This document shows positions 9,923-44,313 of a stretch of DNA of 64,000 nt, one piece after another. Position 1 is the stretch's first letter, and the number at the start of each line of letters is the position of its first letter. The stretch lies in NCBI GenBank assembly GCA_036426205.1, contig CM071573.1, positions 43,574,643 to 43,638,642 on the forward strand. Reading direction: 5' to 3'. Source of the stretch: Ascaphus truei (taxonomy: Eukaryota > Chordata > Amphibia > Anura > Ascaphidae). The notes under the pieces are model-generated. The model was not told the origin of the DNA and did not search any database. It worked only from the letters and a program-made list of their open reading frames with translations. Both the position numbers and the translations under genes were made by a program.

Positions 9923-9956
9923 ACCCAATAAAGAAACGTGAGAACCGAAACGTTGG
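9923..9956 (+). ncRNA. Decayed hammerhead-like module
   Basis: Reads CCCAATAAAG, a short weak stem, then CCGAAACGTTGG. It keeps the GAAA followed by a palindromic ACGT/AACGTT and ends with TTGG complementary to the upstream CCAA. The core is degenerate compared with the better copies, and the call rests on similarity to them. Confidence 0.3.
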
Positions 9957-10594
9957 TTTTGGTGTCCTGCGTTATCTTTAATACAGTTTTTTTCTATACT
10001 GCTGTGTGCTGTGTCTCTGTCACCGGAACACCAAACCAGTTCTGGCATGAAAGTTGTGGTAACAAAAATAATCCTGGATATAATTATATAACTTTACCAA
10101 CACACACTATTTATACAAAAGCAAAGAACATAGGATTTGTAATCTAGATTTCAATAATTATTTTTGCCAGAGATGCTTTGTGTTAGTTTATCACATCACT
10201 AGGTGTGTGGTCTTTATTTCCTAATAATGTGAAGGTTTAACCAGTCAATGAACATCAACTGGAATCATGGCACAGATTTTATATCTCACCTTTAACCCAT
10301 TTTAGCCAAAGAGGCCAGCAGCAAAGAATAATTCAGGTGATAAACAATAGTAAATAAAAATGTTGAGTTTTTGTTTATTTTATTTTTGTACCATTTTACT
10401 GCTGTAATTTGATTAGATGAAATGCTAACCATGTCACTAAAAGAGAATGCTCAGGCATAGTCACGTTCCTGCGAAATAACTTCTCCTTTAAAAACAAAAA
10501 AATGTATTTCTTATCATGGTGCCATCATGTACATTACAGGTAGTTATGGTGGAAATCGCCCACAAGACTCACTCCTGGACAAGTTGTTTGCTAA

Positions 10595-10868
10595 GATTTT
10601 CTGGTAGCCACAGGATGCGGTAGTACAGAGCACAGCGGAACGACAGGACTCCACAGGAAGAGTAAAACGTTTTCTTTATTGACACGTCATGGTGCAGACA
10701 GGTATGGGTGCAAGATCTGTGTGGAGAGGAGGAGATCTTGCACCCATACCTGTCTGCACCATGACGTGTCAATAAAGAAAACTTTTTACTCTTCATCACT
10801 GCTGTCCTGTGGAGTCCTGTCGTTCCTCTGTGCTCTGTACTACCGTATCCTGTGGCTACCAGAATATT
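10595..10868. repeat. 260-bp inverted repeat (foldback)
   Basis: The left arm from CTGGTAGCCACAGGATGCGG (10601) is returned as its complement ending at CTACCAG (10862), with few mismatches and almost no spacer (centre near 10731). Each arm carries GTGTCAATAAAGAAAAC, an AATAAA-bearing phrase like the sequence that follows the ribozyme-like modules elsewhere. It may be two tail-to-tail copies of a PLE-type terminal repeat. Open frames on both strands (10569-10895, 10679-10969) share peptides because of the palindrome and are not genes. Confidence 0.85.
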
Positions 10869-11334
10869 TACTTTACCAAGCAGAAGCACGCACATCCAGG
10901 AGAAAAACGGGCATGGTTCATGTGAGTTTTTTGCATTATTGCAATTACTGGGAGGTACTATACGGGTGATTTTAGGCGGTCTGAGACTGTGTCCTCATTG
11001 GGAGTGATGTGGTAGGGTTTATATATCTCTGCTCACAGCACTTACCAGGACCATATATACATGTCTTTTATGTACGCCCACCTGCATACCCCAGCACTCA
11101 CTTGTGTTAAAAAACCTACCGTTGATTAACGTTCTTCAATCAAGATTGTTTATATCGCTATCAACCGTGGTCATTAGTAGCACTATCTTAGAACATTGTT
11201 CTTTTACCCTGCAGTTTGCTAAGATTTGTAGGAATGTGGCCTGAAAAGTAATGCCAAATCTGGCAGCCTTCCTTACCAAGGGTTGGTTTGGTTCTAAAGC
11301 CACCGTGTAAAATTATTAGTGTATATCATTCTTC
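10869..11334. other. No gene seen
   Basis: Mixed composition, probably repeat-derived, with no coding signature. Confidence 0.4.
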
Positions 11335-11640
11335 TGTAACGACTTAAGTTTTCATTGTTGCTGCTATTCGCGACAAGGGAGAGTGTAGCAAAGGCTGAGA
11401 AGAGACTCAGGACTCCGGGTAAGCTTACTTAGGCTACGCTTTATTATACAGAACCCGAACACACAGCGGACAAGCACTATCCCTAAATGTCAATAGAGAA
11501 GGAGAGGACAAGGAGGACCGTGAGCCTAAGCCGACGATGTAGTGACTGCTCAACCTCCTTGTGCTCAATGCTCTCTCTCGATTCTGTAGACTGAAATATT
11601 CGAACTATTTATCTAAGAAATGTAACAATATACAGTACTA
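11335..11640 (-). mobile_element. Possible LTR fragment
   Basis: On the minus strand the order is a TATA-like GATAAATAG, a spacer, CTGTATAATAAAGCG (poly(A) signal), a block with GAGTCTCTTCTCAGCC, and a CGTTACA end. This is the order expected for the promoter, R and U5 of an LTR. The 5' border and target duplication cannot be fixed, since flanks near 11335 and 11751 do not match. Confidence 0.3.
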
Positions 11641-12776
11641 GTGGGACTGGTTACAGTACGTAAGATACAGGGAGTTAAACCTCTTGAGTTCCCAAATGCC
11701 ATTATGATTTTTATTGAACTGCTTGCTGACAGGGCGCTAATCACTGTAACATAGTGTCGGATTCCCTGCAGCCTTCTTTCCTTGCTTAGATTCAGTTTGG
11801 GCTCCTGCATGGCAGCTAATGAACGCTTTCAACCCCAGCTTTATAATGCTAATTAACACATTTGACAGGATAAAACAATAATGTAATTGCGTTGTGCAAT
11901 GCATTGGCCCTTCTATAACTAATAATAATTAAATATGGCAAATATGTTTTTAATGGCCGGATGCTTTCATTATGATACAAATCTATGTTTCTAATTGGGA
12001 CTTCAGTTTTATGTGTAGTTCAATTCTGTAAATTAAGGATTTACAAGTTTAAATTCTGCATAGATATCAGATCTTGAATCGTCAAGCAAATGGCACGAAA
12101 TTAATTATAAAACAAGCCAGCATTAATTATTGTACAAAATTCACATCCCCTGGGAAAATTACTTCTCGACACAAGGCAATTCCTTTGAGATTATAACAGG
12201 AGCATGTAGCAAAAGGAGGATTATAAATATCTTTATGATTTCAATTTGTAGCAGGTTTATTGTAGGTTGTGATATCTTTTAATGGCACAACAAGAGAGTT
12301 CATTCTATTTATTATGTAATAGTGTGTTAAGAAAGTTAAAATCCTAGCAGTTTTGGTTCATGAATTTGTAATAGAAATTAGGATTATCAACCTTTTAAGG
12401 GATCCATCAAACAGGAGATGCATTCAAACTATCATCCATAGGTGTCTTGTAACTCATTAAAAATAGGATTTAAAAACTGCTATAGGGATTGTATCAATAT
12501 TGGTGTTACTAAAGACAATACCAACTGCTTAAAAAAAGTAAAAGATGAGATCTTTACTGTGCAAAGCAACCTCCATCCTAAAATACATATAGCAGCGTCG
12601 CATGGGTTCTGTAATTGGAATTTTCTGGCCAAATAGAATAACAGTAAAACAAATAGTTAAAGAAACCTTACCTTATAGCACGTAAATGCAAAACAAAATA
12701 AGACTTATTTAAACCATCATTATTCACATAGTTGGCAATCATTTCAAAGTCGGTGTTACTATAGCTCTGCTGAGTA
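11641..12776. other. No gene; candidate conserved non-coding patch
   Basis: AT-rich and free of recognised repeats. About 12100-12270 is complex sequence with several homeodomain-type ATTA/TTAATTA motifs (CATTAATTATTGTACAAAA, AAAATTACTTCTCG), the look of vertebrate conserved non-coding elements. Conservation cannot be judged from one sequence. Confidence 0.3.
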
Positions 12777-13115
12777 TAAGGCTGTGTCCCCTGTGCCGCT
12801 GACCGCGCTCATGCTTGAGAGTGGTGATGTAACCAACTCTCCAAGCATGAGCGTTCGGTTGTCCGGCAACTTTTTCGGTAAGCACGAGTGGGGGGCGTGG
12901 CCTAACAGTGACTGGCGCTGATTGGCTGAGGAGGTCATGTGACCCCTTAGTGCACCTCAAACTCAATTTAATCTGTCTCGGCAAGCGCCCAGCGCCCGCG
13001 AGTGTACGTGCATGCTCACGGGCACGCACGCACCATGTGAGCGTGGCCGGACATATTTAAATTGATTGTGCTGAACGCGCCAAATGCAGTCAGCGTTAGC
13101 GTGGACCCAGCCTTA
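12777..13115. mobile_element. Harbinger-type MITE A
   Basis: Terminal repeats TAAGGCTGTGTCC and GGACCCAGCCTTA match at 12 of 13 positions when inverted. The interior is CpG-rich with GGGGGGCGTGGCC and CTGATTGGCTGAG. Trinucleotide ends of TWA type and GGC-starting termini fit PIF/Harbinger non-autonomous elements. The left and right triplets are TAA and TTA, so the duplication is imperfect. Related CpG-rich elements lie at 33426, 34038 and 55350. Confidence 0.7.
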
Positions 13116-13392
13116 GCCTGCTTCCTCTCGCTTCCATTCTACACAGGGTAAAACAATACGTTGAACAAACGCACTCAATAAAGTATTGCTATTATCCATT
13201 ATTTAGTCACTTCTGTCATCTTAAATAAAAATACAATATACTTTATTCCTAGCCTTTAGGGCCCTGTAGAGTAAAAGAGAGGTCACCAGAAAAAGAAATG
13301 TAGCACAGAAGTCAGTCTTCAGCCCTGGGACAAACTGCAGTCAGTTGAGAGAAGGGAAGCAGGATTATGCATTCAAATTTATTGTGCCAAAA
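13116..13392. other. No gene seen
   Basis: AT-rich then mixed. The right part (from about 13320) is probably the flank of the module at 13393. Confidence 0.35.
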
Positions 13393-13430
13393 GAGCTGTT
13401 TCGGCAGTATACAGCTGCCCTTTTCACGGA
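13393..13430 (-). ncRNA. Hammerhead-like module, variant
   Basis: On the minus strand: GTGAAAA, a perfect 5-bp hairpin stem GGCAG/CTGCC with a 7-nt loop, then GAAACAGCTC. It keeps the A at core position 8 and the palindromic AGCT after GAAA, but position 3 is G and the outer stem is unclear. It is followed by ACAATAAATTTG, an AATAAA at the distance seen in other copies. Confidence 0.35.
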
Positions 13431-14216
13431 GAGGGATACAGGACAAGAACATGTATACAAATATACTGTATACCTAACGAGTACTCACCCCACCGCGCTT
13501 TGAATGCTTAAGACCGTGTGCCTGCTTCCCTTCTCTCCATAGGTATACCTTGGGATGTCTGGACGTCCCTGGACCCAGCGCACCGGCAGAAAAGTACCCC
13601 CCTCCAGCACCATATTTCTGAGTGCGTGTTCTTCTCTCCATTACATACTGTGGTCAGGCAACTGTGGTGGCGGCCTCGGAGCCTGGAGGTTTAAAACAAT
13701 GGGGGGGGGGGATCCGCGAGCAAGAACCTCACCCCCACCCTCACAGCGGCTACGGTAGACACTATATCTAGAGCAGCACATTTTTGCTTTTTCATCCGCG
13801 GCTCCGGAGACTGTGCATCTGTCAAATGACTTTTAAAGTTAAGTGGAAAACCCTAAACATGTATTTTATAGTTTAAAAAAAGGAGCCATTTTCCATTTTG
13901 TTCTAAAAAGATTATGGGTATCAGTTCTCCCTTGTTCTTTCCCCAACTCTACCACTGTAGCGTCTTCATGGATTGGATACAAAGAACTTCGGGAAATCAA
14001 TAAGAATGCTTTGATTTCTGGAGCGTCGCTGAGCTGTTTGGAAGGAGCCCATATTATCATGAGAAATCAAATTTCTTTTAAATAATCATGAATATTAAAT
14101 GCTGCTATGATGTAACTGTTTGTAACCCTGTTCAGTCTACATGTGGCTGAATATAAGTGAGAACTTGCTCCCTCTCATGCCAGCCAATTCCTTCCTATAA
14201 ATAATGCAAGTCAAGT
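13431..14216. other. No gene seen
   Basis: Includes a GC-rich patch with a run of ten G (about 13700-13710). Open frames of 60-80 codons at 13555-14085 show no domain and overlap on both strands. Confidence 0.4.
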
Positions 14217-16172: not shown

Positions 16173-17536
16173 GTGAGCGGTGATAAGCCCCTTTTCTGCA
16201 GGTTCTGAAACTCATGCAATTCTAGTAGCCTTGATTAGTTTATCAAGTCTAATCGCGGCTCTAAAATGGCGAGTTTCTCCCAAAATCCTTACGCCTGGAA
16301 AAGTTGGCGTGAAGCTGGGGAGAACTGCTTAGAAGGCGATGAGAAGGGACTCAGAAAAAAATGCTTTTTTCCTGCATTGGATTGATGCCGGGAGTCTCCG
16401 GAGCTGATACCCATTAATATCAGCACCGGAGACCCCCGGCATGAATCACATGCAATAAAAATGCATTTACAGGCAACTTCATTACCCTAGCGGCTGACCG
16501 CTAAGGCATTAAAGGGGTTAACTATCAGTACCATGTTAATTGTGGGTAGCGGGGGTGGATGAAGGTGGTGGGTGTTTAGGCCTTGCGAGGGGTTTGTGGG
16601 TGGAGTTAACGCCTTCATTACCTTTGCATTTAATACTGCTAAGGTAATGAAAGGGTTAACCCCTCCCGCTACCCACCCGGTAGGCATAAACACCTACCAA
16701 GAGCCAAATACCAACTTCAACCATCCTCGCTACCCACAATAAACATTAAATACACTACTACCCACCTCCTCTACCCCCAGCAACCCCCCACAACGCATAC
16801 AGTACATTAATGGGCAAAATAACTATTATCCAGATATGGATAATAGCTCATTTGCCCATTCTAAAAATCAAACATTAGCCAGCCAGCATAAATAAAGTAA
16901 ATTAAACTTTCTACTTACCTCTGCCATCATGAAGGGCGTCCTCGTCAGCATACTCCAAGTCCATGTCCTCCGTTGCCAGCAAGAGAACATGAAAAAATAC
17001 AATCTAATGGCCCCATATCCCTTAATCACCTTAGCAATTAATAACTGCTATAGTAATTAAGGGGTTAACCCACCCTCCCCCGCTACCCACCTGGGAGGCC
17101 AAACCACTCACCAAAGTGCCACTATGCCCACCCTCTACCCATTGATTGGCACAGTGGCACATCATACCCATATAATATGGGCATGATAAGCCACAATAGC
17201 ACTCAATGGTCAACCTAATAAAAATCAATGCCAAAAATACACAAGAATAAATTAAATACACAATTACCTAAACACCCCAACAATAAAAGAATTAAAAATT
17301 CTAATAGTACACATGAATAAAAATTATCTATCACCAAAACAGCAAAAGAATACAAATTATGTTATTCCAAAACATAAGAATTAAATTAAATAAACACCTA
17401 TCCAACAATTCAAGAAACTAGAGCAAAAAATATGCAAATAAATGCACAAAGCAGCGCACTGCCCAGGGAAACAGGTGTATAAAAATAGAAAAATATTTAT
17501 TGTCTATCACACATGACAAACAAGGAGGTGTGAACC

Positions 17537-17576
17537 CTCCAACGCGTTTCACACAACACAGTGCTTTATTAAGGAG
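17537..17576 (-). ncRNA. Hammerhead-like module
   Basis: On the minus strand: outer stem CTCC, core TTAATAA, an extra A, hairpin GCAC/GTGT (one G-U pair, 6-nt loop), GAA, palindrome ACGCGT, T, then GGAG pairing fully with the first CTCC. This follows the type-I hammerhead order of stem I, core, stem II, GAAA, stem III and cleavage triplet (GTT here). Core positions 3 and 8 are T and A, a compensated change of the usual C and G. Position 5 is A instead of G, which would probably impair cleavage of this copy. Confidence 0.45.
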
Positions 17577-17578
17577 TT

Positions 17579-17705
17579 CCCGAGATACAGGCCCCATTAT
17601 GGGGTGCCGGTATCTCCTATGCATTTTATTCCCACAGTCACGTGACGCAAGACGTTTAGATGCATTGGAGATACCGGCACCCCATAACGGGGCCTGTATC
17701 TCGGG
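17579..17705. repeat. Inverted repeat with 39-bp arms
   Basis: Arms at 17579-17617 and 17667-17705 (CCCGAGATACAGGCCCCATT and its complement) differ at one position. The 49-bp loop contains GTCACGTGAC, itself palindromic. The right arm continues into repeat R1, so the left arm is an inverted copy of the R1 start. Confidence 0.85.
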
Positions 17706-18870: not shown

Positions 18871-19467
18871 GTAAAGGGAATTCAAAGATGGGTAGGTATG
18901 TTATAAGTGCAAAGCGGGCTTTATAAAGTGCATAATAAAGGAAGCAAATATACATATGAATCTTGTATTTAATAAGCTTTGCGGGTAACATTGGAGACCT
19001 TTATGAGATTGGCAAAAGGAACAAATGAAACAGAATAAAAATAACCACGAGTCCAGAGTTGGGGGATTAAGGGTTATTTTCCATTTTATTTTAATAAAAT
19101 GTTTGATGTTTATCGCTTATTTTCCTTTAAGCCCCAAAATGGGATTTTACGTGCTGGCACATGATGTTAATTGGTTGCTAACCCATTCAGTGCTAGAGGA
19201 ACATGAAATACACGGTTCTGACGCATAAAGATCTATATTAGTCCTAGTGAAACCATGAGCTTCCATCCATGCACGTAATATACTGTACACAAATTACTCA
19301 TATACATTTAACAGGTACTTTGCTCTAAATGAGTGTTTCTCAATGAAAGGTGACCTGGAGCCATGGTGAGCCGCTACTCTATGTCAAGTGTACCGTGATC
19401 CCAGGGGGAAAAAACTCTACTGGCTGCCCAGTGGGTGCCTCCTGCGCTCCTTGGAGAAGTAAAGGGT
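18871..19467. other. No gene seen
   Basis: AT-rich, then a GC-richer lead into the minisatellite at 19468. Confidence 0.4.
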
Positions 19468-19855
19468 GCAATTCGCCTCTCTTCTCTCAGCCCGGCACAG
19501 AGGCTGCGATCCGCCTCTCCTCTCTCAACCCGGCTCAGTGGTTGCGATCTGCCTCTCCTCTCTTAACCCGGCGCAGAGACTGCGATCCGCCTCTCCTCTC
19601 TCAGCCCGGCACAGAAGCTGCGATCCTCCTCTCCTCTCTCAGCCCAGCACAGAGGCTGCGATCCGCCTCTCCTCTCTCAGCCCAGCACAGAGGCTGCGAT
19701 CCACCTCTCCTCTCTCAGCCCGGCACAGAGGCTGCAATCTGCCTCTCCTCTCTCAGCCCAGCACAGAGGCTGCGATCCACCTCTCCTCTCCCTGCCCGGC
19801 ACAGAGGCTGCGATCCACCTTTCCTCTCTCAGCCCGGCACAGAGGAGAAAGAGGA
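19468..19855. repeat. Minisatellite, 38-bp unit, about 10 copies
   Basis: Unit roughly CCTCTCCTCTCTCAGCCCGG followed by CACAGAGGCTGCGATCCG. CCCGG occurs at 19491, 19529, 19567 and 19605, exactly 38 apart. Because 38 is 3n+2 the frame rotates, giving spurious open frames of 209 and 144 codons on the plus strand (19350-19979) that repeat LSSLSPAQRLRS. Not a gene. Confidence 0.92.
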
Positions 19856-20270
19856 GCCTCTCCATCTGCAAACAACACAGTGCTCTGCCTCAGCGGCTGA
19901 CATGTTTGAGGCATATGGGATGTGGGTGATGTTGCTATACATTTATCAAATACATATGTCTATTAATACCATTTTCTAATTAAGCTTGATACATTTGGTT
20001 CTACATATAACATTAACTGTACAATAGATGTAAAAGCCTGTTTTATTTAAACTAAGTGGAAGGCTGCTTCATGGTCTATTGAATATCCTTAGAATGAATT
20101 ATAGAAAATTGCACAAATAGTGTAGTTTGAATGTAAAGTTGATAGAACCATTGGCAGGCTCAAAGCCGCTCAAATATTTCCATCCACACAAAGATTGCCC
20201 AATATCCCTCTTCACATTTAAGATTCCACTGTGGCAAAACATTTTTCCATTCAAATAAAACAATGTAGAG
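19856..20270. other. No gene seen
   Basis: AT-rich spacer. Confidence 0.4.
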
Positions 20271-22700: not shown

Positions 22701-22952
22701 CTTTCATAAATGTGCTCCTTTGCTTCTCCGCGTTCCTCGGGCGGATGTTCCGTCACTGGGAGGCGGGCTTTGGGGAGGAAGGTACTTCCTGCTTCCGATC
22801 CCCTTCTGACGCACTGATCTCGTCAATATCGTCAATAACAAGCTCTGAAATTTGCCCTATGCTTTCGTGCGCATGCGCACACTTCTTCTGGGGGTATCCC
22901 CTGAACATCCGCCCGAGGAACGCGGAGAAGCGCAGGAGCACGTTTATGAAAG
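22701..22952. repeat. Inverted repeat, 50-bp arms
   Basis: Left arm 22701-22750 (CTTTCATAAATGTGCTCCTT onward, including TTCCTCGGGCGGATGTTC) returns in complement at 22903-22952 with few changes; spacer about 150 bp. The right arm ends two bases before the hammerhead-like module at 22955, so the 5' flank of that module is inverted-duplicated. Open frames on both strands here share peptides for this reason. Confidence 0.8.
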
Positions 22953-22954
22953 AG

Positions 22955-22992
22955 CTCTTTGACAAAGGGCTGCTGTCCGAAACGCGTCAGAG
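22955..22992 (+). ncRNA. Hammerhead-like module, best-preserved copy
   Basis: Outer stem CTCT (22955-22958), core TTGACAA (22959-22965), extra A, hairpin GGGC/GTCC with a TGCT loop (22967-22978), GAA, palindrome ACGCGT (22982-22987), C, then AGAG (22989-22992) pairing fully with CTCT. The putative cleavage triplet is GTC, the canonical one. Core positions 3 and 8 are T and A, a compensated change from C and G, which pair in the hammerhead fold. A CATTAAA-type stretch follows downstream. The extra A before the hairpin is not canonical, so activity is uncertain. Confidence 0.5.
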
Positions 22993-24245
22993 TGCTGACC
23001 TATTAGTTCACCATGATGTCTACCATAGATTAAAGTGTTTTTAACCCCATATTTGCTGGTGTCTAGCCCCCTAACCTTTACTGCTGTGCTCCGTTTTATT
23101 TCTACGTGAAATCTCCTTGGTGTCCTATACTGTATGTAGTTAGTTCTTTATGTAACTATGCTTTTTGAGTGTTTCCTATTGGGCCTGGTATTCCTTTGAT
23201 TAGAATATCAATTCCAGATATGACAGGTCATCCTGGATTCCCCAGTATGTGTATTTTGGGGAGCATGTAAAATGTTCCTGGTTTGGGTCATCAGGGATGA
23301 GACTGATACAGTTTTTGATATTTTTGGGGAATAGTTTGATCGTGTCCTCTAGTTCCTTGGTGTATTGTTCTGTGGGGTTGTTGGGTAATTCTGTGTAGTA
23401 CGTATAATCTGTTGTCTGTTTGTTTTTATAGATCTAGTCCTAATGGTTGTGAATAACAATTACACCCTTTTGTCTGCTGACTTCATGACAATATGTTTAT
23501 TTTTAAGGATTGTATTGCTCTTCCTTCCAATGGGGTAAGGTTGTTTTGTTATCTGTCTTGTGTGGTTTAGAGATAGAAATGAATGTACTGTAAGAAGTCC
23601 TCCGGCAGCAGCGGCGGCAGCAGAAGGGAGATTGTGACACAGCGCTGCGTAGTAGATATAGGCAATGATTCTGGTTTGTAATGTAGAGCTAATGCATTAA
23701 GGAAAATAGACTATGGCATGATGTCACAGAATGTTAATGTACAGTGCAGGCTGCAATTAGATTTAATGGTGTTGTTTTATATAAAGAAAGCAATGTTCTT
23801 TTTTTTCTAATAAAGGGACTTTCTGCTTTTCCTTTGCCAGTAAGTGTTTGGCTCGGATTATAAATCAACCCTTTTTCTGCAAAAAAAAAAAAAAAAGAGT
23901 ACATCACATTGAGTTTGATTTACTAGCATTAGGAACATACAGTGAGTGCTAGAAGGATGGTTAAGTGCTTTTACTGTACTTTACATTATTTCAACAACAG
24001 CACAGCTACTGGAAGAATTGTTAACCCATGAAACACTGTTTTTTTTTAAATCAGGTATATTCTTTGACATGTACAGATGTAGCAGATGTTATTGCACGTG
24101 TTAACGTGATGCATTGTTAATGCAACTTTGTAGCACCAACATTGAAAAACAATGATAGCATGTGTTATCTCCTTAAATATTAATGCATTTTTTGTGTTAT
24201 TCTGCATTATAATACATTAATGCACTATACTGGTTTGCCCTAGTA
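22993..24245. other. No gene seen
   Basis: The first 100 bp probably belong to the terminal repeat carrying the module. The rest is AT-rich with an A-run at 23880-23896. Confidence 0.4.
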
Positions 24246-24414: not shown

Positions 24415-25029
24415 CCCTAGTATATTTGTGTGGTCATGTCCCTTTAAATTGTCCATCTACATATAGCATTTAATCACCCCATGTACCATATACAGCAAGA
24501 GCCCATACAGGATAACATGCTTGGGGACCCTCTCGTTTCATTCACTGCCTGGTTATGGGGTCCCTACTTATATAATTGCTTTCTAATTTGCCCTTATATG
24601 GCACTCTTTTGCGGGGGTCTCCACCGGCTACGCTTTGTCAGCTGTCGGTTTGCTTTGCTTCAATTATGATCTCTAAGTGATGGCGACCGTCTGATTAGGG
24701 TGTAATTCAGTACTGGTTTACTCTTAACTGAAGACCTTCTCTCCACACTGCTATGTGTTATTACCATTTCAGCCCTGTGATTGCATTTGCCATATTATTT
24801 GTTTCAAGTCTGCAGCTACATTGTTGTCATGATTAGAATGTACTCAATGTGTTTCTGTAATGGCTCTGTGACGTTCCCATTGCTTTTTATTCTCCTTGTG
24901 CACTTGTATTATAGCATTGTCTGTCACTGTTCATATTTGCTGACGTCTTGCTCGGAAATCTTTCCACTTCCCATGTTTGCACCCTTTTTCGTGGGGTTTA
25001 AATGAAGGCCTTTTATGTTTGTTCAGATT
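24415..25029. other. No gene seen
   Basis: Probable PLE-type terminal-repeat leader near the right end, with no recognisable coding sequence. Confidence 0.35.
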
Positions 25030-25069
25030 GGTCTTGAGAAAGGTCCCTATCGGGACCGAAACATCGATC
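25030..25069 (+). ncRNA. Hammerhead-like module
   Basis: Outer stem GGTC (25030-25033), core TTGAGAA, extra A, a perfect 6-bp hairpin GGTCCC/GGGACC with TATC loop, GAAACATC, then GATC (25066-25069) pairing with GGTC (one G-U). The triplet before the return strand is ATC, an allowed NUH site. Core positions 3 and 8 are again T and A. ACAT in place of palindromic ACGT could be one CpG-decay step. Confidence 0.48.
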
Positions 25070-26212
25070 TAATACATTGTGCACCTTTTCTTGTAAATCG
25101 GGTTTCTCCCTCTGGCTTCTGCACGCACCAAAACCCAAAGCAAATGCAGCAGGTCACACAATTCCTTTATCATCATGTGATATGTGCTGGCGATTCACTA
25201 GCTGCCTGGCGATTTTTTCTGTAAAAGCCTTCTAATTTGGCAGCTTTATGAGCCCTTAGGGATTTGCTAAACAATTTGCAACGAATCGAAGAAAACATGC
25301 TAAAATGTTGGCGATTGCACTTCAGATGGATTTGCACTTCTCTACGGTTCAGCTGGGTCAGGAGGGAAGTAAAGGAACTTGAAGACAGACTATCTATGTA
25401 GAGGATTGACAATTTGTAAAGCAGACCCAGGGCCGTACCCTGTACAGTGGAGGGGTTTTATCCCTTTTTTACCCACCATAACGTATTTAATGTGTGGTTG
25501 AAACCTATCCCAGCGTCACATTGCAAAGCCAGTATAACCAGCCTCACACTGATGTGACCAAATGGTTGAAAAACTGTCTGTGAGTAGGGTTACTGGCTTT
25601 GCAACCCAGGCTGTGCTGAAAATATGTGTACTGCGGCAGTCATAAGCTTATAGGGATCCATGTTAAAATGGACATGAAGAAAAAGGTGACACTATGTGCT
25701 CATTTGCATGTAATTTCCCAGAACCCATCGCTGCAGTGGAAGTACTGTATGCTATTGGCTAATCGGGAGGAGAAGCATTACAGACCTGTCTGAGACATGT
25801 GAATGTGCTCACAATAGATATTTTTATTTGCTGATGAACAGACCCCAAATACAACATGGCATAGAGTGAGAGTCTGCACCTCCAGTCTACCAGTATCAGT
25901 TGAGTAAACCAGGACATAGCAGATATGAAAATGGGTAGACAAAATGATCCAAGCTCTTTTTATGGTATCTGCCTTCAAATGTTTCTATGACACAGAGGGC
26001 TACTGTATGTATAGCTTTTTTTTTACGATTTGAAAGAGTAGATCAATTTCCCACCTGAAAGCACTAGTGGTATTATGTCATTAATTGTGTTCTTATATTT
26101 GATGCATGTTGGCTTATTCTTTGTACGGTGTGCTCATGTTCATACATATAAATACATTAAGAAAAGGCATCGCATATTTCCCTTTAGAAAATCCCATTGT
26201 ACAGTATTTTAT
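25070..26212. other. No gene seen
   Basis: Mixed composition without recognised repeats or coding sequence. Confidence 0.4.
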
Positions 26213-27560: not shown

Positions 27561-28419
27561 AGGCAGGAGGGAGACAGGCCGATAGTTAGAAAGACAGGTA
27601 GGGGGTCAAGCTTGCTGTTTTTGAGTAATGGTATGGCTGTTGCATGTTTGAGGAGGAGAAAAAGGTACCAGAGTAAAGAGAGGACTTAAAAATATGTGTG
27701 AGCATACGGATTATAGTAGGAGAAAGAGGTTTTAGGAGATGGTGGGAATGGGGTCAAGAGGGCAAGTGGCAGATGGAGAAGAGGAGAGGAGCAGTGCTAC
27801 ATCCTCCTCTGTGACAATGGAAAAATAATTAAAGAAGGCAGGAGGAGACTTAGGAAGAGGTGTAGGATGGGAGGAGGAAACAGAGGGGATGTTATGATGT
27901 ATGGATTCCACCTTTTAATTGAAATAGTCAGCAACGACCTGAGGTGAGATGGAGGAGGAAGAAGAGGCAGCTCAGTGTGGTCTGAGTGGGGAGTCAAAGA
28001 CAGAGAAGAGTCTGCATGTGTTAGACTTGTGCGTGTAGATTAGTGAAGAAAAATAGGTTTGTTTAGCCTGAGATAGGGCAGAGTTGAAACAGGATAGCAT
28101 AAATTTATAGTGAATGAAGTCTGCAAGAGTGTGAAATTTCCTCCAGAGGAACTAGTGCAGGAATGCAGCATGGGTGTGTGGGAATTTAGCCAAGATCTGG
28201 GGTTAGAAGGGCAAGAATGTCAGGGAGAAAGCGGGGCATGTAGATCAAGAGAGGAGGATAGGGCAAAGTTGTAGTTCTTGATCGGGTTATCAGGGTCTGG
28301 AGCAGAGCTCAGAGAGGAGAGGAACGAGCGTAAAGTGGAAACAAAAGCTGGTAAGTTAATAGGTCTCTGCAGAAGCAAGGGGTAGGTGGAGGCAGAGGAG
28401 GGAAGAAGCGAGAGAGAGT

Positions 28420-29208
28420 AGATGAGATGATGGTCAGAGAGAGGAAGGGGAAAATGAAGAAATCAGAGAGAGAAACGTTTTTAGTGAAAACCTGGTCTAG
28501 GTAGTAGCCATACTTGTTGTTGCTGGCTGCAGTCCACTGTTGATGGCCAAAGTAAGAGGTTAGAGAGAGAAAGTGGGAAGCCCAAGGGAGAGAGGGGTCA
28601 TCAATATGGCAGTTGAAGTCCCCAAGGAGAAGAACAGGGTAGTCAGAGAAGAGAAAGAAGGAGAGACAGGATTAAAAGGGAGAGAGAAAGACAGAAGGGG
28701 GATGAGTAGAGGTATGCGGGCAATAGATGACTGCCACGTGAACAGGGAGAGGGGAGAAAATCTGGACAGTGTGAGCCTCAACGGAGGGAAAAGCAAGAGA
28801 GGGAGGAATAGGAATGGTTCGGTAGCAGCATATAGAGGAGAGCAAGAGCCCCACACCTCCTCGGGGGTGAGGAGTGTGGGAGAAAGAGAGGCCACCATAA
28901 GAGAGGGCAGCTTCCAGAGCAGAGTCAGACTGAGTTAGCCAAATCTCAGTTATAGCAAAGAGAAGAAGAGAGTGAGAGAAAAAGAAGTCATGCACGGTGA
29001 GGAACTCGTTAGAAAGGGAGCAAGCATTCAAAAGGGCACAGGAGAATGGGAGAGAGGAGGGAGGGTGAGAGGGGATGGGTATGATGTTAGAGGGGTTCAT
29101 ACCAGAGGGAGTGGAAGTTGCATGAGGGAGGCGAGGACGAGAGCAAGTAGAAATAAGACAGGGACCAGGATTGTGAGAGATGCCCCCAGAAGCAAGGAGG
29201 AGAAGCAT
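28420..29208 (-). pseudogene. L2-like APE endonuclease with NPGP leader
   Basis: The minus-strand translation begins MLLLLASGGISHNPGP, then CALLNACSLSNEFLTVHD (start of the APE endonuclease), FAITEIWLTQSDS (the conserved glutamate region), GGVGLLLSS and HVAVIYCP. After a frameshift near 28700 it continues LLGDFNCHIDDPS (GDFN motif), YYLDQVFTKN and LSDHHLIYSL (SDH motif). So the main endonuclease motifs are recognisable in order but split between frames. NPGP at the N-terminus matches the end of 2A-like peptides known from some CR1/L2-group LINEs, though here the preceding residues (GGISH) are not the usual DxEx. Confidence 0.78.
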
Positions 29209-34000: not shown

Positions 34001-34037
34001 CTTCGAACATGAGTCATATTATTTGAAGCTATTCTTA

Positions 34038-34894: not shown

Positions 34895-35290
34895 TATGGC
34901 CATGTTACCACACTGGAAGTGATTACTGGTTCCCACACCGCTAGACCAATCCCACAGGTTCTGGCTGGATAGGACGTCTTGGACCTCCTCTCAGTATACA
35001 GCTGACCGCTGGTATCACCTGGTCTCAGCTTGTGTCCGGCCGTACCTCCTGTATCTCGAGCGCTAGTGCAGGGACCCGTACGGCAAACGCCGATCACACA
35101 TGCCAAACTCTGGCGGCCACTGATGACATCACGGCTTGTGTCATTTGTTACCGCAATTCGTCGATAGACTGACAAAAGTTTTTTTGCCCGCAAACTCATG
35201 CCAATAAAGTACAAGGATTTTACTATATAAATCCTACGCGTTTCGTAGCTACCAGCTACTTCTTCATGAAATAGTGGCAGTCTACAAATG
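34895..35290 (-). mobile_element. Probable PLE-type terminal repeat with ribozyme-like module
   Basis: On the minus strand the hammerhead-like module (35232-35270) is followed by TTGTACTTTATTGGCATGAG and then GC-rich sequence of the sort that follows other modules. No coding sequence is present. Extents are estimates. Confidence 0.4.
35232..35270 (-). ncRNA. Hammerhead-like module
   Basis: On the minus strand: TTC, core ATGAAGA, extra A, perfect 5-bp hairpin GTAGC/GCTAC with TGGTA loop, GAA, palindrome ACGCGT, A, then GGA pairing with TTC. The putative cleavage triplet is GTA. Core position 3 is A rather than C while position 8 is G, so this copy has lost the core pair. Confidence 0.42.
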
Positions 35291-36142: not shown

Positions 36143-36925
36143 AAAATGGTTAAAACTATGTACAATTAATTAATCCATCATATAAAATAGTTCCTAAAAA
36201 TCCTTTGTTAAAAAGTTTTGTATAAAAACTATTAAAATAAAAAATGTTATCAAATATTAATCTGGATTTAAAAAACTTTATTAAATTAAAAAATATTGTG
36301 GTATTAGATTCATATTGATCTCAATAAAGAGACCAAACGTCAATCTCCTCATTCAGGCCCAACAGGGCTAGTGTGTTCATTTTATAAATTCACAGACTCT
36401 CATGTCTTGATAAAGCCTTAATCCTGTCTCCTCCTCGTCTTTCTGCTTGGACGATCTGGATGCCCTTCTACTGTAGCTGTGAAGAATCACTATGATGTTT
36501 TAATTTAAATTAAAACATAATAGTGATTCTACACAGCTACAGTACCGTGGAAGGGCATCCCGATTGTCTAAGCAGAAAGACGAGGAGGAGACAGGATTAA
36601 GGCTTTATCAAGACATGAGAGTCTGTGGATTTAAAAATGAACACCCTAGCCCCGTTGGGCCTGAATGAAGAGATTGACGTTTGGTCTCTTTATTGAGTAG
36701 TTATCTCTGTACCATTATATATTATTAATTTTCTTTTTAGGATTCAATATAGATATAATACCACAATATTTTTTTTAATTTAATAAAGTTTTTTAAAATC
36801 CAAATTAATATTTTATAAAAATATGTATTTGTAATAATTTTTTAAACAAAACTTTTTTAACAAAGGATTTTTTAGGAACTATTTTATATGATGGATTAGG
36901 TCATTGTACATAGTTTTAACCATTT
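36143..36925. repeat. Giant palindrome, about 780 bp
   Basis: Two arms of about 365 and 420 bp are reverse complements around a centre at 36506/36507 (TTTAATTTAAATTAAA). Matching landmarks include ATGGTTAAAACTATGTACA with its complement at the far right, CAATAAAGAGACCAAACGTC with GACGTTTGGTCTCTTTATTG, and CTGTCTCCTCCTCGTCTTTC with its complement. Divergence is moderate, with several indels. No spacer separates the arms. No coding sequence. Confidence 0.9.
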
Positions 36926-39621: not shown

Positions 39622-40331
39622 GCAATACAGTGTGTTTATGTGGCAAGACAACTCATAAGTCTCCATAAATATTAAACGTTGATATTATTAGCATTCGTGC
39701 ATATTAAAACTTCACCAACTTCCTCTTAAGAAATGGTCATTTCTGTGCCAGTTTTGCAATGTGCTAAAAAAATTGCTGCATAATTTAAAATATTTTGTGT
39801 CTTGTGAACATTTCAAGTCGACAATATCAAAGAACAACAAATTGTGCAGAATACGGAGGTAAAAAAAAGCATATAAAAATGCATTATTCCATTTCTTTGT
39901 ATTTTCTTTCCTATGCAGCGTTGACAATAAACGTACAGTAGTGCTACGCATGGAATGTTCCAGGAATAATGAGTCCTGATTCCAAAGAGAGTTCAATCAC
40001 ATTTTCAGTGCCTGATGCACAGGGGATAAAAGGACTTGCCCAAGGTCACAAGGAGCTTACACCAGGATAGGCACAGGGGTTTAGCCACTTCAAATACTGT
40101 ATTCTTACAACTACAGTAAGCTACTCCTTTCCAATATTCAGTAGAAATGTTATTACACAACCCTCATACCGACTGCTTCAATGAGGACACATCAGTTCTA
40201 ATAAGTGGTAAAAAGCCTACAACTTTACAAGCACATACTATTGGCTTGCTACAGCAAGGAAATGAAAGAAAAGTGCCATAGTGCAAAGAATACAACTGTT
40301 CAAAACTAGCTATTTCAGTGACAAGACATGT
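39622..40331. other. No gene seen
   Basis: AT-rich, without recognised features. Confidence 0.4.
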
Positions 40332-40417
40332 AGGGCCATGTTTAGTAAGCAGTGCTATTCCATAGAACACCTTTTAGATGGCTTTTGAAATGCCCTTGCT
40401 TAGTAAATAAGGGCATG
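40332..40417. mobile_element. Short MITE, 86 bp
   Basis: GGGCCATGTTTAGTAAGC at the left and GCTTAGTAAATAAGGGCATG at the right are imperfect inverted repeats. Too short for anything but a minimal non-autonomous element. Confidence 0.45.
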
Positions 40418-41299
40418 TAGAGTAATTCACATTACTTGAGACTTCTAGCTAAGCTCTGGGCTTTATCTGATTTCAAGCATGTAACGACTTGTGTTATTAA
40501 TTCTCACAAGACTGGGCAACATTTACACACATTTTCCATAAACTGGTTTTCCTTATTTGGTCTGGCTTCTTATACTGTAGATCTTTTCATAAAGGTCGTA
40601 AAAACGGTTGTTGCTGTGTCTTGGATTCTTAAGACCTCTTATACGTACCATGTATAGATATTTTTTCTCCCTGGTCAAAATGTATTTCCTGGATCTTTTC
40701 CAAAAATGGATATATCTATACTCACCTCTGCTCTCTGGCTTCTGTTTGTAATCAAGAGCATATTTTCAATGTCTTGTATGTGCTTGTGTTAGTGTTGAGT
40801 TTAGAGAGATCATTGGGTTTCCTTATTTCTTTTCAACCACACAATGTGTCCCCTTTTTACAACTTTTTTATGTTTCTAAAATGAGAAAAATTCTCCTGGT
40901 TTATTTTGGAAAGTAAACAGGAACAAAACGTTATTACTGTTATAGTTATCGAAGAGTGGGATCTTAGTAAGAGCTATAACCAGGACATACTGTACGCAGA
41001 TAACAAGATGTGTACTAATAGAGTCTTAGTGGTTACAGGGGGAACCAAGACCCCTTCTACAATGGGTACCATTATATGGTCTTTATGAAAGGTGTAGTGG
41101 TCACAACTTCGTGGCACTTAATAGGATCAGGACCATATCTGAAGTAGAACATGTAAATAAGGAACCTGAGTGGGCCCTGAAACTGAACTCATCCGTTAGC
41201 TCCTAGATGTCAATCATTTGATTGTGTGTGTGTGTGTGGGGACCTTAGTAACACACTGCCAACGTGGATTAGGACTTTAGGTCGCAGCCTTTTTGTTGC
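40418..41299. other. No gene seen
   Basis: AT-rich, with a short (TG)n run near 41224. Confidence 0.4.
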
Positions 41300-41504
41300 T
41301 GTCGGCGTTTAGCCGCCACTCACCTTGCCACCGGGACATCTCACCGCTGGCCATTTGCCACTAAGGTAAGCCCCTAACCTTACCCTACAAACTCTTAATA
41401 TTAAACACTAATACTAACGCTACCCTAACGCTAAAAACCATAACCCCTTACCCTTATTCCTTACCCTAAAAACCTAACCCCCTACCCTAACCGTTAAAGC
41501 TCTT
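41300..41504 (+). repeat. Telomere-like interspersed repeat, copy 1
   Basis: Degenerate CCCTAA/CCTAAC motifs (CTAACCTTACCCTACAAACT, CCTAACCCCCTACCCTAACC) flanked by GCCGCCACTCACCTTGCC on the left and AAAGCTCTTTAAATGAACTT on the right. The copy at 50220-50470 has the same order in reverse complement, so this is an interspersed element, not a telomere. Confidence 0.65.
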
Positions 41505-41690
41505 TAAATGAACTTACCTTATTGGGGACTGAGTGTCCAGTGGTGGGACAGCCGCGACTGAGTGTCCAACGGTGGAGCGGCCATGACTGAATGCCAGTAG
41601 TGGGACAGCTGAGTGTCCAACGGTGGAGCGGCCGTGGCTGAGTGCCAGTGGTGGGACAGCTGAGTGTCCAACGGTGGGGCGTCCGCAGCA
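41505..41690. repeat. Minisatellite of GACTGAGTGTCCA units
   Basis: Alternating units of about 29 and 24 bp (CTGAGTGTCCAACGGTGGAG and CTGAGTGCCAGTGGTGGGAC) form a higher-order repeat of about 52 bp. It follows the telomere-like repeat directly. Confidence 0.8.
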
Positions 41691-42472
41691 AAGAGTCTAT
41701 TGGCTCAAACTGGCCGCAACCACATGCCCAATTCCGCCGCTAATGTAAGTCAAAATTTGCATAAATTCCTCCCTCGAACTTACTTTACATACATCAAAAC
41801 GTAACCTAAATTCACTACATTACGTATATGAACAATTGTCAGCAATTTAAAATAAAGGCATTTTAAAATGCATGCCACTAATTATTTAACATATTACAGA
41901 GCTATTTTTGAGAAGAGATGATGATTGTGGGAACATAAAGTATCATACTGTTACAAATAGTGTTAGTTATCTGGAGCAATGCAGTTAATTGTGTGGATAT
42001 GGCATTAAAAGGCTGCAACATTGGGACAAAAAGTGTGCAAAAACAGCACCAGATTAATAAAAGAACAAAATCCATCTGAAAGCAATGTGGTGTATGGTAC
42101 AGCATGTTTTGCGTTTGATAATTCTGGTGTTTTTTCACTCCATCTATATTGGTTTTGCACACAGGACATTATCATAAATAATGAGATCACTGGGAAAATA
42201 ATGAATACCTGTATTTACTTTTTCGCATATAAAACTATTCTTGGTCAAAGTTGCATATAAAAATGTTTTTTTTTTTTTTTTTTTAAAGAAGCAATTAGAT
42301 GCTCTTAGAATCCTGTTTTCGCAAAGTTTATTTTGGGAAAATAGGTAATTTTTTAAATAAATCCCATTTTCATTTTGTTACTAAAAGAGCAGTGATCCTA
42401 AGCATGCACTTATAACAGCACTTCAACTACAATAACATATGGTGTGTCTGTATAAGACAAATCTAATGGTGA
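41691..42472. other. No gene seen
   Basis: AT-rich, with a T-run at about 42267. Confidence 0.4.
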
Positions 42473-42588
42473 AGAGACGAAGACCTGTATTCTGTAAGAT
42501 GCGAAAGCGCCAATCCGGAAAGCCCCATTAACTCAATTGCTACATTGGCGCAATCACAGCATACAGAATACGGGTCTGGGTGTCTCTT
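42473..42588. mobile_element. Short MITE, about 115 bp
   Basis: AGAGACGAAGACCTGTATTCTG and the complement of CAGAATACGGGTCTGGGTGTCTCT form the termini. The interior includes two GGCGC/GCGCC pieces that also pair. Unknown superfamily. Confidence 0.6.
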
Positions 42589-42898
42589 TTATTTGAAATC
42601 TGTCTTGTTCACGGACTCCCTTTCCATTCAGTTGCTTGGCAACCATACCAGCAATAAAAAGGAAAGAAAGGGAGCATTATGAATAATAATTTACAAATTG
42701 CTAAGAAATCCCACAGGTATCTGTGTCTGTCCATACTGAGGATATGCTTCAAACTTGTAGCATCCACTCTGTTTTATTTCAAGTAATGTCGTGGAAGGAA
42801 AGAACTTTACCTCTGTTAAAAGTTGCATCTGCATTTAGATGTATTATTAATACAGACCTTCCAACATGTTGCATATAAATATACAGTAGATTGAGGTA

Positions 42899-43113
42899 CA
42901 GCTCAACCCCCTTATAACGCTGTGCTTGGGGTCCAAAGAATCACATTGCGCTATAAGCGGATCGTGTTAGACATAATGTACAATTGTTTGTATTGTACAA
43001 TAAAATATTTACGATACCAATAATCGTGTTGTAAAGTATTCATAAATACGAAAATTGGGAGCCACGCTTGCATCGCGTTATAAGCGGATTCGCGTTGTAA
43101 TGGGGTTGAGCTG
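42899..43113. mobile_element. pogo/Tigger-like MITE
   Basis: Termini CAGCTCAACCCCCTTATAAC and the complement of GTTGTAATGGGGTTGAGCTG match with two differences, bounded by TA on each side (42897-42898, 43114-43115). TA targets, CAG ends and internal GCGCTATAAGCGGA-type phrases fit pogo/Tigger elements of the Tc1/mariner group. No transposase is present. Confidence 0.75.
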
Positions 43114-43612
43114 TAGTACCTCTTCTAGTGCTGAATGGAGGTGCTTGCATGCAATTCCTAAGCATGTCCCCTAAACTAAGCAGTTTACCACCTACACACA
43201 ACTTTCTGTTTATTAGGTACAGCATGACATGTATATGGACATGTTACCACTACAGCAGACTGCAACTGTGTTGGATCACGTTGATTCAGCCCGGCAAACA
43301 GATCAGATCCCCTCTCTCTCTTTCTGGCAGCAGTCTCTGCAGTCCTTCCACTCGTTCACTGTGTAGTGAGGGTTCTGCTGTCGTGGATATGAAGAGAAAG
43401 GCGACGGAGCCTTCTGATGACGTCATCAGTGTGTGCACGGAGAGCCGATACCCGGAACCAGTAAGGAGTTTTCATTAGTCCTAACTTCTGTGCACTAAAG
43501 AGAATAATATTACGATAACTTTAGCCTTAACCAATATCAATACATTTCTATGGACGTTAGAATATACACCTATGCAAATAAGATGTTAATGACTTGGTAG
43601 CCCAGGGGTTCT
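43114..43612. other. No gene seen
   Basis: Contains a GC-richer patch at 43260-43480 with a TGATGACGTCATCA palindrome (43415), likely repeat-derived. Confidence 0.4.
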
Positions 43613-43761
43613 CAACTCCAGTCCTCAAGAACCCCCAAGAGATCAGATTTTCAGGATATCCAACTTCAGCACAGGTGGCTCAATCAGTGGCTCCCCACTT
43701 CAGCACAAGTGGCTCAAGCGAAGATTGAGCCACTGACTGAGCCACCTATGCTGACACTGGG
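43613..43761. mobile_element. hAT-like MITE, truncated
   Basis: CAGGGGTTCTCAACTCCAG start and the CACAGGTGGCTCAATCAGTG centre, with the right end missing. Belongs to the GGTTCTCAACTCC subfamily together with 60211. Confidence 0.75.
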
Positions 43762-44004
43762 ATAGCTGTAATGTAATATATCCTTAGGTATACTGTAAGT
43801 GATGCACTTTCTCAGAGCTGACTGTTTGCAGTACTTAACACAGCCTGAAGCCTTTTTTAATTACTTAATATAAAATGGCTTACAAACTTGCCTATGTGCT
43901 GTGAATTTTAGCATGCACATGGGCTACAACGAATGTGCATTAATTGGAAAGAATGTTACATTTTTCTCAATGTGCATGTACTGTATTGCTTAACCTGTCT
44001 CAGC

Positions 44005-44185
44005 GCTATTAACGTACCCGCTAAAGCATTTATCGCTACAATACTGCTTTTGGTGATGGGCGTGGATTTTGCATCTAATTAGCTTAGTGGAAACCCAATA
44101 AACTCAGGGCAAATAACAGTTGCTATCTATTTAGATAATGTCACGTTACTTGCCCTCATATAACAGAGCTTCGTGTATCTGGGCC
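44005..44185. mobile_element. Family C right-end fragment
   Basis: TTAGTGGAAACCCAATAAAC and CTCAGGGCAAATAAC match 49405-49435, and the terminus GCTTCGTGTATCTGGGCC is the complement of the family C left end. Confidence 0.6.
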
Positions 44186-44276
44186 TTAATACTCTACAAG
44201 GAAAAACACAAAGTTGTCATTCTCCACAGTGTACACAGAGGGTTACATGTTTTCTTTTTACATGAAGGCATCACAG

Positions 44277-44313
44277 CCCTGAAGAAGAGAGTGGACTCTC
44301 GCAACACGTAGGG
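44277..44313 (+). ncRNA. Hammerhead-like module upstream of PLE fragment
   Basis: CC, core CTGAAGA (44279-44285), extra A, perfect 5-bp hairpin GAGAG/CTCTC with TGGA loop, GCAA (GAAA with one change), CACGTA, then GG. Core positions 3 and 8 are the usual C and G. The outer stem is only 2 bp. It lies 1.3 kb upstream of PLE-like coding sequence on the same strand, with a splice-donor-like TAGTAAGTAG between them (44639). Confidence 0.42.

What the first reader, a model, noticed from the sequence alone, without database searches (positions are those of the whole stretch)
9923..44313. Recurrent 36-40 nt hammerhead-like RNA module, about ten copies on both strands
At 9923, 13393, 14922, 17537, 18835, 22955, 25030, 35232 and 44277 (and weakly 62945) the same order appears: short outer stem, TTGANAA or CTGANGA, extra A, hairpin of 4-6 bp, GAAA, small palindrome, NUH-like triplet, return strand of the outer stem. 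Hairpin sequences differ between copies while pairing is kept, which is a structural rather than sequence similarity. The order is that of a type-I hammerhead ribozyme with a very short stem III. An extra A between core and stem II in every readable copy departs from the textbook hammerhead, so this may be a variant class or a fold with another role.
Basis: partly seen in the sequence, partly recalled or inferred. Interest (0 to 1): 0.88.

Follow-up and report, generated by a model that had tools for sequence, protein, structure and literature searches.

The report
Minimal hammerhead ribozymes of frog Penelope elements
The repeated RNA fold is real and is most likely the short hammerhead-type ribozyme that Penelope-like retrotransposons carry in their terminal repeats; this genome, probably a frog's, holds tens of thousands of copies, with an unusual extra adenine and, in one large lineage, a swapped core base pair.

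Summary
Five of the ten listed places are recovered by a covariance model built without window copies: four clearly (22950+, 35226-, 17532-, 44270+; E 7e-8 to 0.0012), 25025+ marginally (0.067). The other five are not recovered at E<=10. In the 2.82-Gb genome two exact patterns give 22,296 and 17,261 copies, against 3 and 2 for reversed controls. In 98 distinct copies stems I and II covary and position 17 obeys the hammerhead NUH rule in 96. Positions 3 and 8, which pair in the folded hammerhead, are C-G or U-A and seldom mixed. The extra A after A9 is present in 97.9% of C3-G8 copies counted. Protein of Penelope-like elements (PLEs) lies within 1.5 kb of 18 of 58 copies, and one locus shows ORF-motif-ORF in tandem. 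This fits the known PLE minimal hammerhead, reported to cleave as a dimer. The extra A has a viroid precedent (PMC3705267). What may be new is the large U3-A8 lineage and its poly(A) signal just downstream of the motif. Cleavage was not tested.

The parts
22954..22993 (+). hammerhead-like motif, U3-A8 type: stem I GCUCU/AGAGU, UUGACAA, extra A, stem II GGGC/GUCC, GAAA, ACGCGU palindrome, GUC
   Evidence: R1 hit 22950-22997, E 7.2e-8; stems; matches L009, L013, L022 and others from stem I onward
23029..23034 (+). ATTAAA poly(A)-signal-like site, 70 nt from the start of the core of the 22954 copy
   Evidence: the same offset is usual in the U3-A8 lineage
35226..35276 (-). hammerhead-like motif, AUGAAGA core, extra A, stem II GUAGCU/AGCUAC, GAAACGCGUA
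   Evidence: R1 E 4.4e-6; 83% over 46 nt to L053
35299..35306 (-). TATATATA, TATA-like, starting 39 nt upstream of the core of the 35226 copy
   Evidence: position agrees
17532..17581 (-). hammerhead-like motif, U3-A8 type with G5 changed to A; stem I CUCC/GGAG, stem II GCAC/GUGU, GAAACGCGUU
   Evidence: R1 E 2.5e-5; 71% over 101 nt to L023
17496..17501 (-). AATAAA, 71 nt from the start of the core of the 17532 copy
44270..44319 (+). hammerhead-like motif, C3-G8 type, GCAA instead of GAAA, ACACGUA
   Evidence: R1 E 0.0012
25025..25074 (+). hammerhead-like motif, U3-A8 type, 6-bp stem II GGUCCC/GGGACC, GAAAC with an AUCGAU palindrome in place of ACGCGU
   Evidence: R1 E 0.067, marginal; also found by the stem scan
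45630..45902 (+). Penelope-like element protein fragment, same strand as the 44270 motif and about 1.3 kb downstream of it
   Evidence: tblastn 52% over 77 aa to an L059 ORF, E 1e-15; 47% over 81 aa to P0003, E 4e-15

Best explanation
The motif is the minimal type-I hammerhead ribozyme of Penelope-like retrotransposons, left in the window as remains of their pseudo-LTRs. Stem I is short (about 3-4 pairs), the core is YUGANRA plus one inserted A (A10), stem II has about 4-5 pairs and starts with G10.1-C11.1, then GAAA, and the return strand holds the palindrome ACGCGU in place of stem III, followed by H17 and the other strand of stem I. One copy alone cannot form stem III. Two copies can: the two ACGCGU palindromes pair into a 6-bp shared stem III, each active site is built from two strands, and cleavage would fall after H17. 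TATA-like sites 31-40 nt upstream suggest that transcription starts at or near the 5' strand of stem I. In one large lineage (U3-A8) a poly(A) signal lies 50-90 nt downstream, so the motif would lie in an R-like segment present at both ends of the RNA, where cleavage would cut tandem or read-through transcripts at element boundaries. Shown here: anatomy, covariation, copy number, PLE association. Inferred: dimerisation, cleavage, transcript ends. The element's own protein may be needed, as reported in vitro for the Anolis PLE PAc (PMC11167929).
For: Copies: 22,296 (CTGANGAA...CGAAACGCGT) and 17,261 (TTGANAAA...), with 3 and 2 for the reversed patterns. Stem II positions 2-4 pair in 95, 94 and 87% of 98 copies against 41-45% when partners are shuffled; stem I positions 1-4 in 90, 83, 81 and 63% against 70, 68, 48 and 41%. 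With every partner slid by 1-3 columns pairing falls from 84% to 36-44% and the covariation score from 0.61 to 0.13-0.17 (82 sequences, 6 pairs). H at position 17 in 96 of 98 and G10.1 in 98 of 98; neither was imposed by the pattern. Positions 3/8: C-G 22,296, U-A 17,261, U-G 1,057, C-A 1,141; odds ratio about 319. PLE: an L059 ORF piece finds 6 proteins, 5 of them named frog proteins, two listing GIY-YIG (confirmed in P0003); PLE protein near 18 of 58 copies against 1 of 21 window tiles; L059 has PLE ORF, motif at 4000, PLE ORF in tandem. TATA-like in the -40 to -31 bin in 29 of 91 copies; AATAAA/ATTAAA at +50 to +99 in 26 of 32 U3-A8 copies and 0 of 28 C3-G8 copies. The double-hammerhead dimer is within 1 kcal/mol of the dimer minimum in 10 of 60 copies and within 6 in 47 of 60.
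Against: No cleavage or expression data. Rfam hammerhead models do not accept it: no hammerhead match in the window even at E<=10 and, in 20 loci with known copies, one RF00008 match of 18.1 bits against a gathering score of 48.5. The core letters U4, G5, A6, A9, GAAA and U16.1 were imposed by the search patterns, so their conservation was not tested. 40 of 58 copies had no recognisable PLE protein within 1.5 kb; solo copies would explain this, but it was not shown. The association test is modest (Fisher p 0.017; the loci are not all independent, L031 and L032 are neighbours) and the orientation test, 13 of 18, is not significant (p 0.10). Other retroelement pieces also lie near copies: Gypsy-type RNase H (L002) and integrase (L003), an RVT_1 ORF (L026), an endonuclease piece (L027). 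Pfam found no RT domain in the PLE-like ORF pieces themselves. In one search two of five measures do not exceed shuffles (pairs changed on both sides 5 against 4.9; further pair types 20 against 17.6). 38 of 98 copies lack three unbroken pairs in one stem or the other. The 3/8 coupling may rest on one ancestral switch. The lone 38-nt copy at 22955 does not have the hammerhead as its free-energy minimum (-10.7 against -6.4 kcal/mol).
Confidence: 0.87

Rival explanations
1. The fold is kept for a job other than self-cleavage, for example as a dimerisation or strand-transfer element at the RNA ends (the palindrome acting as a kissing site), or as the site that the PLE protein binds. The hammerhead shape would be a relic.
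For: The motif lies at the likely transcript start and, in the U3-A8 lineage, just before a poly(A) signal. Palindromic ACGCGU favours RNA dimers: dimer more than 4.1 kcal/mol better than two monomers in 50 of 60 copies. In PAc, hammerhead mutants do not affect insertion in vitro (PMC11167929).
Against: A dimer site alone does not explain H17 in 96 of 98 copies, G10.1 in 98 of 98, or the coupling of positions 3 and 8, which are marks of the hammerhead active fold.
Confidence: 0.2
2. Retrozymes or newt-type satellite repeats (canonical type-I hammerheads in 170-400 bp tandem repeats), not PLEs.
For: Amphibian genomes carry such repeats; 126,247 motifs reported in axolotl (PMC7229834, passages).
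Against: In the listed hits (about the first 100 places of 22,296 and of 17,261) I saw by eye no head-to-tail arrays at that spacing. PLE protein lies near part of the copies. The A10 insertion is not in the textbook core.
Confidence: 0.05
3. A DNA-level element: terminal inverted repeat of a foldback or DNA transposon whose palindromes look like an RNA fold.
For: 9 of 58 copies are head-to-head inverted pairs; window copies at 17532 and 22954 lie beside palindromic or inverted repeats.
Against: Inverted pseudo-LTRs and palindromic pLTR ends are described for PLEs (PMC3846280, passages). The base preference at position 17 and the coupling of positions 3 and 8, which lie outside both stems, are not expected of a DNA cruciform.
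Confidence: 0.03
4. Chance similarity of short words, as five of the ten listed places may be.
For: The window alone is weak: my strict scan gave 3 hits against 0-3 per shuffle; 14922 sits in an unrelated inverted repeat.
Against: Tens of thousands of exact genome copies against 2-3 for reversed patterns, and low E-values for four window copies.
Confidence: 0.02

Closest known systems
Minimal hammerhead ribozymes of Penelope-like elements (Cervera & de la Pena 2014, doi 10.1093/molbev/msu232; Lunse, Weinberg & Breaker 2017, doi 10.1080/15476286.2016.1251002; neither text held, seen only through citing papers and titles)
   Same: Short hammerhead with helix III all but missing, in PLE terminal repeats (passages), reported in the 2017 title to cleave as dimers and to be numerous.
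   Different: Whether their published consensus already has A10 and the U3-A8 lineage could not be checked.
PAc hammerhead of the Anolis carolinensis PLE (PMC11167929, passages read)
   Same: PLE pseudo-LTR, stems I and II present; a C3G/G8C double change partly restores cleavage there, while here nature uses C3-G8 and U3-A8.
   Different: The PAc ORF starts at stem II; at L059 the next long PLE reading frame opens about 220 nt downstream of the motif core (start codon not determined).
Chrysanthemum chlorotic mottle viroid (+) hammerhead (PMC3705267, passages read; original de la Pena & Flores 2001 not read)
   Same: One extra A between A9 and G10.1; reported to lower the cleavage rate moderately, while C or G there is harmful.
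   Different: A viroid ribozyme with loop-loop contacts; here the extra A is a trait of a whole repeat family.
Newt and axolotl type-I hammerheads, retrozymes (PMC7229834, passages read)
   Same: Amphibian, very weak palindromic helix III, better as dimers.
   Different: 330-350 bp tandem repeats, tertiary loop contacts; different mobile element.

Membership tests
Hammerhead ribozyme (type I layout) | Stems I and II around the core, kept by covariation | tested here: met
   stem II positions 2-4 87-95% paired against 41-45% shuffled; slid controls fall to 36-44%; two of five measures do not exceed shuffles
Hammerhead ribozyme (type I layout) | C3-G8 Watson-Crick pair in the active fold | tested here: met
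   C-G 22,296, U-A 17,261, mixed 1,057 and 1,141; possibly one ancestral switch
Hammerhead ribozyme (type I layout) | Cleavage triplet NUH (H at 17) | tested here: met
   A 52, U 28, C 16, G 2 of 98; U16.1 was imposed by the pattern
Hammerhead ribozyme (type I layout) | Core CUGANGA directly followed by G10.1 | tested here: not met
   an extra A follows CUGANGA in 22,296 of 22,775 C3-G8 copies counted; known natural exception in CChMVd(+)
Hammerhead ribozyme (type I layout) | Strictly conserved U4, G5, A6, A9, GAAA | not tested
   imposed by the search patterns
Hammerhead ribozyme (type I layout) | Stem III | tested here: inconclusive
   within one copy only 2 bp with a 2-nt loop; can form between two copies through ACGCGU
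Hammerhead ribozyme (type I layout) | Self-cleavage | not testable with these tools
   needs RNA transcription and assay
Rfam hammerhead families | Score above the gathering threshold | tested here: not met
   0 in the window, none at E<=10; in 20 loci with copies one RF00008 match of 18.1 bits against 48.5
Penelope-like element pseudo-LTR | PLE reverse transcriptase / GIY-YIG protein next to the motif | tested here: met
   18 of 58 loci against 1 of 21 window tiles, Fisher p 0.017; relatives carry GIY-YIG; 40 of 58 had none within 1.5 kb
Penelope-like element pseudo-LTR | Tandem or inverted terminal repeats | tested here: met
   L059 ORF-motif-ORF; 9 of 58 copies head-to-head
Retrozyme | 170-400 bp head-to-tail repeats with the ribozyme | tested here: inconclusive
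   no such spacing seen by eye in about the first 100 listed places each; the other hits were not listed

The most novel reading that the evidence does not exclude
The U3-A8 copies are a natural hammerhead subclass in which G8, whose 2'-OH is proposed to act as general acid (PMC6155905), is replaced together with its partner by A8-U3, along with A10, and which is housed in a promoter-plus-poly(A)-signal R-like segment. A PLE lineage would then make LTR-like transcripts whose two ends each carry half of a ribozyme that works only when the two ends, or two RNAs, meet.
Probability: 0.3. Interest if true: 0.62.

Novelty: new member of a known kind. Interest (0 to 1): 0.42.

Why it matters
The class is known, but this genome offers a natural experiment on it: 39,557 exact matches in two core states, a covarying 3-8 pair, and a nearly invariant A10 in the C3-G8 type. 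That makes the open question of what PLE hammerheads do testable, by asking whether cleavage competence or only shape is kept. The copies tested here are missed by Rfam 15 models at their thresholds, so such copies may stay unannotated in genomes of this kind.

Tried and rejected
Rejected: LTR (Gypsy) retrotransposon R region. The TATA and poly(A) signals and the Gypsy integrase next to the motif in L003 first suggested it; PLE ORFs in other loci replaced it. Rejected: DNA-transposon inverted repeat, from the head-to-head pairs, because PLEs can show this. Retrozyme arrays: not seen in the listed places. The alternative hairpin UUGAC/GUCAG in the 22955 copy is not general: the N7 x N17 table shows C7 with C17 in 11 of 98. 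A designed hammerhead with an added core A (PMC12531169, passages) was set aside: its extra A appears, from the printed sequence, to lie in the GAAA strand and not after A9.

Led nowhere: paper search for the motif's letters (23 papers listed, none looked relevant from the listing); Pfam on PLE pieces; a count of copies with other palindromes (pattern CTGANGAAGN{7,23}CGAAACNNGT) and a PLE-centred protein search of the genome (neither was ever answered). MAFFT misaligned part of stem II in A1, so stem II was judged from ungapped anchors.
Full report
What was claimed. Rfam found no hammerhead in the window at gathering scores or at E<=10. A strict scan of mine found 3 copies with the extra A, against 0-3 in each of 20 dinucleotide shuffles, one of which reached 3, so the window by itself was not decisive.

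Genome-wide test. The window is part of a 2.82-Gb genome. Exact pattern counts, both strands, with the reversed pattern as control: CTGANGAAN{8,24}CGAAACGCGT 22,296 (control 3); TTGANAAAN{8,24}CGAAACGCGT 17,261 (control 2). The tool calls its counts of large families lower bounds. Together this is about one exact match per 71 kb; the window has one. In the places listed, the letters between the fixed words differ widely from copy to copy.

Covariation. From the fetched loci except L059 (which overlaps L005) I took every exact match with enough flank: 101 instances, 98 after dropping identical ones. Without any alignment, counting outward from the fixed words, stem II positions 1-5 pair in 100, 95, 94, 87 and 61% (shuffled partners: 100, 41, 45, 43, 40%) and stem I positions 1-4 in 90, 83, 81 and 63% (shuffled 70, 68, 48, 41%); beyond that pairing is near chance. 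On alignment A1 (82 of the 98; I left out 16, mostly near-duplicates and long-loop copies) six robustly aligned pairs are 84% paired, and 36-44% when slid by 1-3 columns. Three of five measures beat all 500 shuffles (cells paired, cells changed on both sides 136 against 45, covariation score); two do not (pairs changed on both sides 5 against 4.9, further pair types 20 against 17.6). I read this as an RNA fold that is or was under selection.

Hammerhead-specific marks. Position 17 was not imposed: A 52, U 28, C 16, G 2. G10.1 was not imposed: 98 of 98. Positions 3 and 8, which pair in the full hammerhead structure (recalled; double-mutant rescue reported for PAc in PMC11167929), are C-G 22,296, U-A 17,261, U-G 1,057 (control 2) and C-A 1,141 (control 1). 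The odds ratio is about 319. In a small tree of PLE protein pieces near motif copies, 8 of 9 pieces labelled U3-A8 group together (local support 0.97, L005 and L059 being one locus; the frog protein P0001 falls inside), the ninth being a second fragment at L013, and the 7 labelled C3-G8 fall outside. So the switch may have happened once and been kept; the counts are copies, not events. U4, G5, A6, A9, GAAA and U16.1 were imposed by the patterns and are therefore not independent evidence.

The extra A. CTGANGA is followed by A in 22,296 and by another base in 479 (control 7) copies that otherwise match. It is a family trait, not decay. For U3-A8 copies the A was part of the pattern and this was not tested. 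One natural viroid hammerhead has the same insertion, A10 between A9 and G10.1, with a moderate loss of rate (PMC3705267, passages).

Where the motif sits. ORFs near several copies looked like Penelope-like elements. One piece (L059:1813-2559) searched against 5.8 billion proteins gave 6 relatives, 5 of them named frog proteins; two list GIY-YIG and the best is Ascaphus truei at 66%. GIY-YIG was confirmed in P0003, not in P0001 or P0006. Pfam found no RT domain in the PLE-like pieces themselves. With these six proteins as queries, 18 of 58 loci have PLE protein within about 1.5 kb of the motif, against 1 of 21 window tiles (Fisher p 0.017; neighbours such as L031 and L032 are not independent); 13 of 18 lie in the same direction (p 0.10) and 11 of 18 are both in the same direction and upstream. 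With L059's own ORFs added as queries and whole loci searched, 22 of 60 sources, window included, had a hit. Other retroelement pieces also occur near copies: Gypsy-type RNase H in L002 and integrase in L003, an RVT_1 ORF in L026 and an endonuclease piece in L027. L059 shows PLE ORFs, motif at 4000, next PLE ORF from 4224. 9 of 58 copies are head-to-head pairs, two of them by short matches of 18 and 29 nt; inverted pseudo-LTRs are described for PLEs (PMC3846280, passages).

Promoter and poly(A) signals. TATA-like words fall in the -40 to -31 bin in 13 of 46 U3-A8 and 16 of 45 C3-G8 copies, and in 0-2 copies in every other 10-nt bin from -90 to +129. In 50-nt bins over 1.8 kb the bin just upstream has 9 of 32 and 12 of 28, the others 0-7 and 0-6, so the peak is clear but the words are common. 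AATAAA/ATTAAA falls at +50 to +99 in 26 of 32 U3-A8 copies (other 50-nt bins 0-6) and 0 of 28 C3-G8 copies. I infer that RNA starts at stem I and that U3-A8 elements have an R-like segment; no RNA data were available.

Window copies. Model R1 (A1), with filters off, finds 22950-22997 + (7.2e-8), 35226-35276 - (4.4e-6), 17532-17581 - (2.5e-5), 44270-44319 + (0.0012), 25025-25074 + (0.067), then noise from 2.5. Two have a poly(A)-like signal at +70 and +71, one a TATATATA at -39. The 44270 copy has a PLE protein fragment about 1.3 kb downstream on the same strand. 9923, 13393, 14922, 18835 and 62945 are not supported.

How it most likely works. Within one copy stem III would be two pairs closed by two bases, which cannot form. 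Two copies can share a 6-bp stem III through ACGCGU, with stem I formed across strands. The nested double-hammerhead is within 1 kcal/mol of the dimer minimum in 10, within 3 in 27 and within 6 in 47 of the 60 copies that had at least three unbroken pairs in both stems; 38 of 98 were left out for shorter stems. This agrees with the title claim of Lunse et al. 2017, which I could not read. In PAc the hammerhead cleaved only with its protein and was not needed for insertion in vitro, so the shape-only rival keeps weight.

Known or new. PLE minimal hammerheads are known (PMC6155905, passages), and PMC7229834 (passages) notes minimal copies in tandem in axolotl PLEs. In the passages read I found no statement about A10 or a U3-A8 lineage in PLE hammerheads; the two primary papers are not held, so no claim of absence from print is made. 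Papers were read as passages only.

Noticed in passing
window 52643-53584, strand -: Reverse transcriptase of a LINE-like element (RVT_1, E 6e-44), with further ORFs to 54931.
   Followed up: partly
window 28312-28671, strand -: Endonuclease/exonuclease/phosphatase domain fragment (E 2e-5), probably a LINE remnant.
   Followed up: partly
window 36144-36925: Nested inverted repeats with a near-palindromic core that scores as mir-122-like on both strands (E 9e-7 and 3e-6, below the gathering score); looks like a palindromic transposon remnant, not a miRNA gene.
   Followed up: no
window 17589-17695: 107-bp palindrome immediately upstream of the 17532 hammerhead copy, matching mir-8489 below its gathering score on both strands.
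   Followed up: no
window 22701-22750 and 22903-22952: 50-nt inverted repeat (94%) ending just before the 22954 hammerhead copy.
   Followed up: no
window 5169-5846, 19387-19918, 61398-61680: Tandem arrays with 49-, 38- and 21-bp units.
   Followed up: no
L003, motif at 1530 (-): A motif copy lies close to a Gypsy integrase fragment, perhaps a chimeric or nested insertion.
   Followed up: no
L012:3284 (+): A C3-G8 copy flanked by longer inverted arms, so that the motif lies at the tip of a large hairpin (by eye).
   Followed up: no
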